The notes beneath the pieces are model-generated. The model saw only the letters and a program-made list of their open reading frames with translations. It was not told the origin of the DNA and did no database searches. This document shows, piece after piece, positions 26,003-26,996 of a stretch of DNA of 64,000 bases (position 1 is its first letter; every line of letters starts with the position of its first letter). This DNA is from Flavobacterium cerinum (GTDB lineage: Bacteria > Bacteroidota > Bacteroidia > Flavobacteriales > Flavobacteriaceae). The translations under genes were made by a program, and so were the position numbers. The stretch lies in NCBI RefSeq assembly GCF_004028155.1, contig NZ_SBII01000003.1:310001-374000 (forward strand), read 5' to 3'.

Positions 26003-26818
26003 TTATATTACAAAATTTAAAGGTTCAGGGAACACTTCCCTACTTTTTATGGTGATCTCACTCTTATGGTATACCAATGAATTGAACGGAACCGAGTTAG
26101 TGATCCATACGTTGCCGCCAATAATACTGCCATCACCAATTACGGTAGCACCGCCAAGTATAGTCGCATTAGCATAAATAGTAACATCATTCCCAATGGT
26201 GGGATGCCTTTTTACGGATGCTTCTGCCTTGCTTACGCTTAGCGCTCCAAGTGTAACTCCCTGGTATATTTTTACATCATTGCCAATGATTGATGTTTCC
26301 CCAATTACGATACCGGTACCATGGTCAATAAAAAAACGTTCTCCAATTATTGCCCCCGGATGGATGTCTATTCCGGTTCGGCCGTGTACATACTCACTCA
26401 TCATTCTTGGTAATACCTGTACATTGTTTTGCCATAGTTCATGAGCCATACGATAAACCGCAATAGCAAAGAAACCGGGGTATGAAATAAGCACTTCCGA
26501 TCGCGATTTTGCTGCTGGATCGAATTCAAATATGGCTTTTAAATCATCTTCAAGTTTTTCATGAAGTATACTAACCTTATCTTTTAAAGATAAGATCAAT
26601 ACATTAATTTCTACCTTATTTAAACCTGCACGATAAAGCAGGTTATCCATTATGCTTTCAAGTTCTTTTTCTTTCCCTAAAAAATAGTCATAATCGGTAT
26701 ATTCTTCACCAATACAAAAGAGCCATTTAAAGAATTCTTCTATCCAATATTCAGTTTTTGCCTTGTCTGGCAGCACGCCGAATTTTAAATAGTTGGCGCT
26801 GTAAACAGGATGTTTCAT
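26003..26818 (-). CDS. cysE: Serine O-acetyltransferase
   Basis: 271 residues from ATG 26818 (MKHPVYSANYLKFG); an earlier TTG at 26830 abuts the attenuator T-tract and is unlikely. The helical N-terminal domain is about 1-125. The left-handed beta-helix with hexapeptide repeats spans about 135-250: VHGRTGIDIHPGAIIGERFFIDHGTGIVIGET carries the catalytic His/Asp residues, followed by IYQGVTLGALS and IGNDVTIYANATILGG. It makes O-acetylserine from serine and acetyl-CoA, the committed step of cysteine synthesis. First gene of the cysE-cysK operon. Its leader contains a cysteine-rich ORF and a terminator. Confidence 0.96.
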   Translation of the reverse strand: MKHPVYSANYLKFGVLPDKAKTEYWIEEFFKWLFCIGEEYTDYDYFLGKEKELESIMDNLLYRAGLNKVEINVLILSLKDKVSILHEKLEDDLKAIFEFDPAAKSRSEVLISYPGFFAIAVYRMAHELWQNNVQVLPRMMSEYVHGRTGIDIHPGAIIGERFFIDHGTGIVIGETSIIGNDVKIYQGVTLGALSVSKAEASVKRHPTIGNDVTIYANATILGGATVIGDGSIIGGNVWITNSVPFNSLVYHKSEITIKSREVFPEPLNFVI

Positions 26819-26830
26819 TGTATAATTCAA

Positions 26831-26864
26831 ATAAAAAAGCTCCTCTTTTGAGAGGAGCTTTTGC
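26831..26864 (-). terminator. Leader terminator (attenuator) upstream of cysE
   Basis: On the minus strand AAAAGCTCCTC (26862-26852) pairs with GAGGAGCTTTT (26845-26835) around a short loop, followed by six T residues and AT. The stem ends only 17 bases before the cysE ATG, so it would stop transcription inside the leader unless disrupted. Confidence 0.9.
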
Positions 26865-26915
26865 GTTAATTAGATATCATTTAAACCTAATTTATACCAT
26901 AGCAAATGCACCCCC
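26851..26915 (-). promoter_or_regulatory. Predicted antiterminator of the cysE leader
   Basis: On the minus strand 26915-26902 (GGGGGTGCATTTGC) can pair with 26864-26851 (GCAAAAGCTCCTCT), giving 12 of 14 pairs with two single mismatches. The second segment is the 5' arm of the terminator, so the two structures exclude each other. The first segment starts at the last base of the leader ORF stop codon. Upstream, 26962-26952 (AAATTTACACC) can pair with 26914-26904 at 9 of 11 positions, a classical 1:2 pairing. Confidence 0.65.
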
Positions 26916-26965
26916 TACCTGAGAGAACAACATAAACATGCCAGATAAACCGGTGTAAATTTCAT
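26915..26965 (-). CDS. Cysteine-rich leader peptide of cysE-cysK
   Basis: A 16-codon ORF reading MKFTPVYLACLCCSLR then TAG. Three of the four codons at residues 10-13 are Cys (UGU). It starts about 24 bases after an exact -7 box, in the A-rich context (AAAAATCGCAATG) typical of starts in this genome. The terminator lies about 50 bases after its stop, followed by cysE. Its position, codon content and overlap with the predicted antiterminator mark it as a sensor of charged Cys-tRNA. Too short for ordinary gene callers; translation is not proven. Confidence 0.7.
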   Translation of the reverse strand: MKFTPVYLACLCCSLR

Positions 26966-26988
26966 TGCGATTTTTGTTTAAAGAAGAA

Positions 26989-26996
26989 CAAAGGTA
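26989..26996 (-). promoter_or_regulatory. -7 promoter box of the cysE leader transcript
   Basis: TACCTTTG on the minus strand, exact TAnnTTTG match. Initiation near 26983 gives a leader transcript of about 165 nt before cysE. Confidence 0.7.

What the first reader, a model, noticed from the sequence alone, without database searches (positions are those of the whole stretch)
26818..26996. Complete ribosome-mediated cysteine attenuator in front of cysE-cysK
Seen on the minus strand: an exact -7 box; about 24 nt later a 16-codon ORF, MKFTPVYLACLCCSLR, with three Cys codons in four; an intrinsic terminator ending 17 nt before the cysE ATG; and a segment starting at the ORF stop (26915-26902) that pairs with the terminator 5' arm (26864-26851) at 12 of 14 positions. 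A further 1:2 pairing (26962-26952 with 26914-26904, 9 of 11) completes the classical set. The logic works. With ample Cys-tRNA the ribosome reaches the stop codon and covers the antiterminator, so transcription terminates. Stalling at the first Cys codons leaves it free, so cysE-cysK is expressed. Cys-rich leader peptides for cysteine genes are known in mycobacteria (acting on translation). I know of no described flavobacterial transcription attenuator of this type.
Basis: partly seen in the sequence, partly recalled or inferred. Interest (0 to 1): 0.93.

Follow-up and report, generated by a model that had tools for sequence, protein, structure and literature searches.

The report
Cysteine-sensing transcription attenuator before cysE-cysK
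In front of the cysteine-synthesis genes cysE-cysK of a Flavobacterium-like bacterium lies a short cysteine-rich reading frame followed by two mutually exclusive RNA hairpins, an arrangement found in many relatives and predicted to let the genes be transcribed only when the cell runs short of cysteine.

Summary
On the minus strand, 26996-26829 carries a -7 box, the leader ORF MKFTPVYLACLCCSLR, an antiterminator arm and an intrinsic terminator, just before cysE-cysK. A mechanical detector found a Cys-cluster leader plus terminator in 21 of 40 cysE upstream regions, 0 of 137 other genes and 0 of 1600 shuffles. Curating by eye gave 30 leaders, mostly Flavobacterium, plus Capnocytophaga, Edaphocola and two Bacteroidales MAGs. 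Swapping arms among 23 non-redundant loci shows cognate 2:3, 3:4 and 1:2 helices stronger than swapped ones; control segments show no difference. Geometry fits: a ribosome at the Cys codons leaves the antiterminator free, one at the stop covers it. Two close relatives lack the leader. Where cysE sits inside a cysH-cysD-cysN-cysE-cysK operon, leaders stand before cysH, in tandem in 6 of the 8 closest cysH loci. The same genome has Met/Cys-rich leaders before an OsmC gene and a probable EamA transporter. Ribosome-mediated attenuation is an old mechanism, so this is a new, cysteine-specific member. It is untested experimentally.

The parts
27016..27030 (-). Perfect palindrome CTACTAAATTAGTAG, candidate operator just upstream of the promoter
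   Evidence: The 21-nt form is exact here and has one mismatch at two other places in the genome; reversed-pattern control 0. Function inferred.
26989..26996 (-). -7 promoter box TACCTTTG
   Evidence: Consensus TAnnTTTG as given in PMC9723704 (passage). Start site inferred.
26915..26965 (-). Leader ORF MKFTPVYLACLCCSLR with stop TAG
   Evidence: Cys-cluster ORFs recur before cysE of relatives.
26927..26938 (-). Control codons TGT TTA TGT TGT (Cys Leu Cys Cys)
   Evidence: The last Cys codon starts 14 nt before the antiterminator arm.
26952..26962 (-). Segment 1, pairs with segment 2 (9 of 11)
   Evidence: Swap test over 23 loci z -3.9 to -4.4.
26902..26915 (-). Segment 2, antiterminator 5' arm GGGGGTGCATTTGC
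   Evidence: 12 of 14 pairs with segment 3. Swap tests.
26851..26864 (-). Segment 3, shared arm: antiterminator 3' side; its 26862-26851 part is the terminator 5' arm
26829..26846 (-). Segment 4, terminator 3' arm (26846-26835) and U-rich tail
   Evidence: Terminator hairpin -16.7 kcal/mol. Covariation over 19 sequences.
26003..26818 (-). cysE-type serine O-acetyltransferase, 271 aa
   Evidence: EpsC model NF041874 above its cut-off, TIGR01172 cysE below its cut-off.
25084..25992 (-). cysK, cysteine synthase A, 302 aa, 10 nt after cysE
   Evidence: TIGR01139 above its cut-off.

Best explanation
The leader before cysE-cysK (26996-26829, minus strand) carries an ORF with three cysteine codons in four, followed by an antiterminator arm and an intrinsic terminator that compete for one shared strand, and is predicted to work as a ribosome-mediated transcription attenuator that senses charged cysteine tRNA. 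Transcription would start just after the -7 box, and a ribosome would follow the polymerase along the leader ORF. With enough Cys-tRNA it would run to the stop codon at 26917-26915 and cover segment 2; segment 3 would then pair with segment 4 and transcription would end before cysE. With little Cys-tRNA it would stall at 26938-26927, leaving segment 2 free to pair with segment 3; the terminator would not form and cysE-cysK would be transcribed. With no translation, 1:2 pairing would likely favour termination. Shown: the sequence elements, their recurrence in relatives, the pairing statistics and the modelled spacing. Inferred: the start site, translation of the ORF, stalling and the cysteine response.
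For: (1) Elements and coordinates. (2) Specificity: Cys-cluster leader plus terminator in 21 of 40 cysE upstream regions with at least 100 nt of intergenic space, 0 of 137 other genes, 0 of 1600 shuffles. Other residues at the same 40 cysE regions: Leu 5, Met 4, Ala 3, Val, Ser and Lys 1 each. By-eye curation raises 21 to 29 of the 40; a thirtieth leader (L003) comes. (3) Pairing, on 23 of the 30 leaders (7 near-duplicates dropped): cognate 2:3 duplexes beat swapped ones at z -7.1, 3:4 at z -9.9, 1:2 at z -3.9 to -4.4; controls z 0.0 (pre-Cys segment with terminator arm) and z -0.8 (spacer with terminator arm). An ungapped 2:3 helix score gives 0 of 20000 permutations as high. (4) Terminator covariation over 19 sequences, window included: 7 of 12 pairs with changes on both sides, 0 of 500 shuffles reach the covariation score. 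(5) Geometry: with a ribosome at the first Cys, last Cys or stop, mean dG of the free RNA up to the end of the terminator 5' arm is -18.1, -16.7 and -1.7 kcal/mol, and at least half of that arm is sequestered in 27, 26 and 3 of 30 leaders. In the window each of the three Cys positions leaves -17.0, against -7.6 at the stop. In 42 of 47 leaders the last codon that still leaves 70% of the antiterminator energy lies -1 to +3 codons from the last Cys. (6) The RNA motif GCNTTTGCNRTGG is kept whether it is read in frame (L036, L047) or lies after an early stop (window, L033). (7) The same device stands before cysH where cysE is inside the sulfate-assimilation operon.
Against: No transcript, ribosome or cysteine-response data. 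Close relatives L032 and L035 lack the Cys leader, and 11 of 40 cysE upstream regions show no curated leader plus terminator. In the 2:3 swap test the cognate partner is the single best in only 8 of 23 loci, in 3:4 in 11 of 23; the window's own terminator arm ranks third of 23 for its segment 2. Column counts of the 2:3 helix are barely above shuffles (18 to 357 of 500 as high, depending on the measure), and a slide by -1 gives a higher covariation score. For 3:4 one of five measures is not exceptional (93 of 500). In the full-length fold the terminator wins in every ribosome state of the window, so the antiterminator must act by forming first. L042, L094, L104 and L071 fit the model poorly, and L037 and L091 fall below half-sequestered at one Cys position. 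Loci are related, so permutations are not independent trials. The offset count admits only Cys codons up to three past the permissive limit, which favours small offsets, and includes near-duplicates.
Confidence: 0.88

Rival explanations
1. A Cys-rich upstream ORF that controls translation of cysE, as is reported for mycobacterial cysteine genes, with the hairpin being only an ordinary transcript end.
For: Cys-rich leader ORFs without terminators are described before actinobacterial cys operons (PMC1262725, passages), and a passage of PMC13236596 calls the M. smegmatis case translation attenuation.
Against: A terminator whose stem ends 16 nt before the cysE ATG, with a U-tract, recurs and covaries, and its 5' arm pairs with the segment after the Cys codons more strongly in cognate than in swapped combinations.
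Confidence: 0.06
2. Cysteine control acts at the promoter through a repressor that binds the palindrome at 27030-27016; the leader is a minor or decaying device.
For: A perfect palindrome next to the promoter, shared with two other places in this genome. Relative L035 keeps a similar palindrome but lacks the leader.
Against: It does not explain the recurring Cys codons, paired arms or spacing. The pattern found a clear palindrome in only 8 of 32 relatives' cysE upstream regions (a few more are visible by eye). It is compatible with attenuation as a second layer.
Confidence: 0.04
3. Chance: a short ORF that happens to hold three Cys codons before an ordinary terminator.
For: Short ORFs and terminators are common, and the leader fold as a whole is only z -1.77.
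Against: 0 of 1600 shuffles and 0 of 137 other genes against 21 of 40 cysE genes; swap tests and spacing.
Confidence: 0.01

Closest known systems
Ribosome-mediated transcription attenuators of amino-acid operons (trp, his, leu, ilv, thr, pheA of enterobacteria; recalled)
   Same: Control codons in a short leader ORF, segments 1-4 with competing antiterminator and intrinsic terminator, position just before the biosynthetic operon.
   Different: Cysteine as the sensed residue, the Bacteroidota lineage, and tandem copies before related cysH operons.
Cys-rich leader ORFs of mycobacterial and other actinobacterial cys operons (PMC1262725, passages read; Canestrari 2020, seen only as a citation in PMC13236596, itself not held)
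   Same: Runs of Cys codons in short ORFs before cysteine genes.
   Different: PMC1262725 finds no conserved terminator hairpins there, and PMC13236596 calls the control translational; here an intrinsic terminator and a competing antiterminator recur.
Leader-peptide attenuation clues in Flavobacterium psychrophilum (PMC9723704, passages and section 19 read)
   Same: Same genus as far as can be inferred, same proposed mechanism, amino-acid biosynthesis operons.
   Different: Conserved 5' elements named in section 19 include pheA and hisG; cysE does not occur in the main text. Supplement not seen.
Short ORFs reminiscent of leader peptides in long 5' UTRs of Bacteroides thetaiotaomicron (PMC7366714, passages read)
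   Same: Same phylum, suspected attenuation.
   Different: The passage names a hypothetical-protein gene (BT_4401) and no cysteine genes.
Tandem attenuators of Salmonella mgtCBR (PMC3641672, title and abstract start in a listing)
   Same: Two short ORFs in one leader region, as in the tandem leaders before flavobacterial cysH.
   Different: A Mg2+ transport and virulence operon; the window's cysE leader is single.

Membership tests
Ribosome-mediated transcription attenuator | Short leader ORF with several codons for the end product | tested here: met
   Three Cys in four codons; cluster recurs in relatives; TGT and TGC both used. Translation itself not tested.
Ribosome-mediated transcription attenuator | Intrinsic terminator between leader ORF and first gene | tested here: met
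   12-bp stem and U-tract; covariation. Termination itself not tested.
Ribosome-mediated transcription attenuator | Antiterminator that competes for the terminator 5' arm | tested here: met
   12 of 14 pairs; cognate stronger than swapped on average. Column counts weak.
Ribosome-mediated transcription attenuator | Spacing: a stall at the control codons frees the antiterminator, a ribosome at the stop covers it | tested here: met
   Modelled with a recalled ribosome footprint.
Ribosome-mediated transcription attenuator | 1:2 protector hairpin | tested here: inconclusive
   9 of 11 in the window; z -3.9 to -4.4 over 23 loci, but variable in place and strength.
Ribosome-mediated transcription attenuator | Read-through rises when the cognate tRNA is uncharged | not testable with these tools
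   Needs expression data.
Mycobacterial-type translational poly-Cys upstream ORF | No intrinsic terminator between ORF and gene | tested here: not met
   A terminator is present and recurs.
Rfam cis-regulatory families | Covariance model match at the leader at gathering score | tested here: not met
   Only RF03130 elsewhere in the window.

The most novel reading that the evidence does not exclude
Bacteroidota run their sulfur amino-acid economy by a family of leader-peptide attenuators: single Cys attenuators at cysE, tandem Cys or Met/Cys attenuators in series at the sulfate-assimilation (cysH), siroheme-sulfite reductase and OsmC operons, layered under a shared promoter operator, with a terminator-less poly-Cys arm of the same logic before cysE in another class of the phylum.
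Probability: 0.5. Interest if true: 0.75.

Novelty: new member of a known kind. Interest (0 to 1): 0.6.

Why it matters
Nine searches of an open-access library listed no paper that, by title or abstract start, describes a cysteine attenuator with an intrinsic terminator or the control of cysteine synthesis in flavobacteria. If right, the finding gives a one-reporter test of cysteine control in a large and little-studied phylum. The tandem arrangement would let one ask whether two attenuators in series multiply their effect. It also adds a cysteine class to the amino-acid attenuators and supplies seeds for annotating unlabelled small ORFs in Bacteroidota.

Tried and rejected
Rfam: no family at this leader. 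MAFFT column counts for the 2:3 helix are weak, probably because the register drifts, so swap tests were used as well. Covariance model R1: in the own genome the cysE leader scores 91.6 bits and 116 further matches are listed at E 10 or better; the L148 leader ranks only fourth (37.9 bits), and the other six fetched besides it and cysE (L112, L113, L115-L118) showed no Cys-cluster leader by eye, so R1 alone does not find it. Over 199 genomes every genome has a match at E 0.05 or better, so that tally says nothing; of the loci fetched, none of the 17 below 51 bits (L131-L147) looked like a Cys leader by eye. L152 and L153, fetched because R1 hit them twice, hold tRNA-like repeats with terminators by eye, not leaders. 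SUMT: no match in the own genome at E 1e-20, 4 of 13 genomes match. cysH: no match in the own genome at E 1e-40, 69 of 121 genomes match. A first version of the detector misfiled four cysE genes as other genes; one search replaces it. L035 was inspected by eye for a non-ATG Cys ORF; not convincing. The palindrome with up to two mismatches is near its reversed control in many of 61 genomes, so no regulon claim is made.

Rows dropped: 7 near-duplicates; 5 in the Cys codon count; L078 not curated because it has no ATG start; L008 and L130 (short records) were read at a wrong offset, but the same locus was read correctly as L055.

Full report
WHAT IS THERE. On the minus strand the window reads, in order: a palindrome CTACTAAATTAGTAG (27030-27016), a -7 box TACCTTTG (26996-26989), a 16-codon ORF MKFTPVYLACLCCSLR (26965-26915 with its stop), a G-rich segment (26915-26902), a spacer, an intrinsic terminator (stem and loop 26862-26835, U-rich tail to 26829), cysE (26818-26003) and cysK (25992-25084). 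The proteins are a serine O-acetyltransferase (NF041874 above its cut-off, TIGR01172 below its cut-off) and cysteine synthase A (TIGR01139 above its cut-off).

RELATIVES. One same-genus genome (G033) agrees in contig length and place with the record of Flavobacterium sp. AG291, so the genus is taken as Flavobacterium (inferred). Eighty named cysE loci were fetched. Where cysE begins its own transcript, short ORFs with Cys clusters recur although the rest of the peptide changes: MIVTPMFTACTCCSLL (F. subsaxonicum), MRTVALNAVICMCCLL (sp. AG291), MKKVNQSYKASCICCPEKRGVSVLLLLV (sp. MK4S-17), MSRINSIGTHCCTCSKSEGFVL (F. tegetincola), MMLFVCNMCCMMWKNPQSISIA (F. profundi), MEIYTNKNMMCCTTCKSSAYIVL (Capnocytophaga MAG), MFHQTCCQYCCCTMWDHPASGMVM (two Edaphocola), MFLSEKTYMPCCCSFTAKAVAGLFFRE (Bacteroidales MAG). 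In 25 leaders the Cys codons are TGT 55 times and TGC 22 times, with both forms at each of the four positions counted back from the end of the cluster, which is consistent with selection for cysteine.

IS IT MORE THAN CHANCE. A detector asked for an ATG ORF of 10-35 codons with at least three of one residue within six, 35-110 nt before a terminator, in the window and the 80 loci. For cysteine it fires at 21 of 40 cysE genes with at least 100 nt of free upstream space, at 0 of 137 other genes, and in 0 of 1600 dinucleotide shuffles. For other residues at the same cysE genes it fires 5 times for Leu, 4 for Met, 3 for Ala and once each for Val, Ser and Lys. Eight further cysE regions missed by the detector were accepted by eye (L038, L039, L042, L055, L060, L062, L071, L094), so 29 of 40. 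The remaining 11 include two close relatives: L032 (sp. Sd200, which by eye keeps a terminator-like hairpin but no Cys ORF) and L035 (F. rivuli, which keeps neither). Four more of the 11 are Flavobacterium with a more distant cysE (L096, L098, L100, L109).

THE SWITCH. For 23 non-redundant leaders of 30, segments were compared across loci. Cognate 2:3 duplexes average -14.5 against -10.3 kcal/mol for swapped ones (z -7.1), 3:4 -14.9 against -8.7 (z -9.9), and the segment before the Cys codons with segment 2 -12.0 to -12.1 against -9.5 to -9.8 (z -3.9 to -4.4). Two control combinations give z 0.0 and -0.8. The cognate partner is the single best in 8 of 23 loci for 2:3 and 11 of 23 for 3:4. An ungapped helix score repeats the 2:3 result (19.7 against 15.5, 0 of 20000 permutations as high), though the window's own terminator arm ranks third of 23 for its segment 2. 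Column counting on the 19-sequence MAFFT alignment supports 3:4 on four of five measures and 2:3 hardly at all, probably because the 2:3 register drifts. Examples of drift with pairing kept: GGGGAGTTTCTGT with ACAGAAGCTCTCC in L043 (13 of 13), GAGGGTTTTGTG with CACGAAACTCTC in L056 (12 of 12), CGCAGGGGTTT with AAGCCTCTGTG in L082 (11 of 11).

GEOMETRY. If a ribosome covers 13 nt from the first base of its A-site codon (a recalled footprint), then at any of the window's three Cys codons the free RNA up to the end of the terminator 5' arm folds into the antiterminator at -17.0 kcal/mol. One codon later it drops to -13.2, then -9.3, then -7.6, where it stays at the stop with 3 of 12 arm bases held. 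Over 30 leaders the means are -18.1 (first Cys), -16.7 (last Cys) and -1.7 (stop), and at least half the arm is sequestered in 27, 26 and 3 leaders. In 42 of 47 leaders (the 30 plus 17 from other operons) the last permissive codon lies -1 to +3 codons from the last Cys; the count admits only Cys codons up to three past the limit, which favours small offsets. When the 3' arm is included, the terminator wins in every ribosome state of the window, so the antiterminator must act by forming first. Some leaders read on through segment 2 (L036, L043, L047); others, the window and L033 among them, stop near its edge. The RNA motif GCNTTTGCNRTGG is kept in L036 and L047 in frame and in the window and L033 after the stop, which points to selection on the RNA there.

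THE DEVICE FOLLOWS THE OPERON. In several Flavobacterium, cysE lies inside an operon that in L149 reads cysH-cysD-cysN-cysE-cysK-SUMT-cysJ (cysH, cysD, cysN; SUMT; cysE; the last two by likeness to named genes). A leader then stands before cysH, and often two: first for example MKKQVLNMMMCMCCSENEEGFAVR with its terminator, then MNTLTTITTILASTACVMMMCCMRNFARGRLLYYLL with a second terminator. Of 30 cysH loci fetched, the closest 8 give six tandem (L160-L165; the second terminator of L164 is weak, -9.9 kcal/mol), one single (L167) and one with none (L166). The other 22, of a more distant cysH type, show no Cys ORF with a terminator. In G024, whose cysE has its own leader (L003), a tandem pair precedes SUMT-cysJ (L154). 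The window's own genome has no cysH or SUMT match at the cut-offs used, but has two more places with leaders rich in Met and Cys plus terminators: a tandem pair before an OsmC-family gene near metK (by eye) and a homocysteine S-methyltransferase gene (L148), and a 64-codon ORF before a gene that looks like an EamA transporter (L222, by eye) whose promoter shares the palindrome with cysE.

HOW IT LIKELY WORKS. The best explanation is classical attenuation with cysteine as the sensed residue; the start site, translation, stalling and response are inferred.

KNOWN OR NEW. The mechanism is old. PMC9723704 (passages and section 19) reports attenuation clues in F. psychrophilum amino-acid operons, with no cysE in the main text. 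PMC7366714 (passages) mentions leader-like short ORFs in B. thetaiotaomicron. PMC1262725 (passages) describes actinobacterial Cys leaders without terminators. PMC2965389 (searched for terms) has no occurrence of cysE, cysK or Bacteroidetes. PMC3641672 (listing only) describes tandem attenuators in another operon. Nine searches of an open-access library listed no cysteine attenuator with an intrinsic terminator by title or abstract start. I call it a new member of a known kind.

Noticed in passing
L149, L150, L151, L155 (heads of cysH operons); L162, L164, L165: Two Cys or Met/Cys leaders in series, each with its own terminator, before cysH of the sulfate-assimilation operon.
   Followed up: partly
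L154:939-1261: Tandem leaders MKNLFTVCMPCNCCAKCGEVTAMV and MKIVTNITANTNTTKCCMMCCMQNPAESRMLCCCCC before SUMT and cysJ in a genome whose cysE has its own leader.
   Followed up: partly
L148:2233-2531 (own genome, contig C12): Tandem leaders before an OsmC-family gene near metK (by eye) and a homocysteine S-methyltransferase gene; the second, MKMRTSIYTNMHNIYFTWMCCMHWCCQKRMT, is rich in Met and Cys. The first has one Cys where similar leaders in relatives have several.
   Followed up: partly
L222:1574-1830 (own genome, contig C30): A 64-codon Met/His/Cys-rich ORF followed by a terminator before a gene that looks like an EamA transporter, sharing the promoter palindrome of cysE.
   Followed up: partly
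window 27030-27016; L221; L222: Palindrome TCTACTAAATTAGTAGA, three exact copies in the genome (cysE, a gene that looks like a sterol desaturase, the EamA-like gene); candidate operator of an unknown regulator.
   Followed up: partly
L017, L022, L026, L028 and similar (upstream of another cysE type): A conserved upstream frame with endings such as TYNTFCYMCSCC-stop, about 180-260 nt before cysE, without a clear ATG or terminator.
   Followed up: no
L190, L197, L205, L106: Upstream of cysE, a frame ending Thr-Cys-Ile-Cys-stop by eye (only L205 has an ATG ORF in the detector), no terminator seen.
   Followed up: no
   Followed up: no
   Followed up: no
window 4216-4243: L19-Flavobacteria ribosomal protein leader (RF03130).
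   Followed up: no
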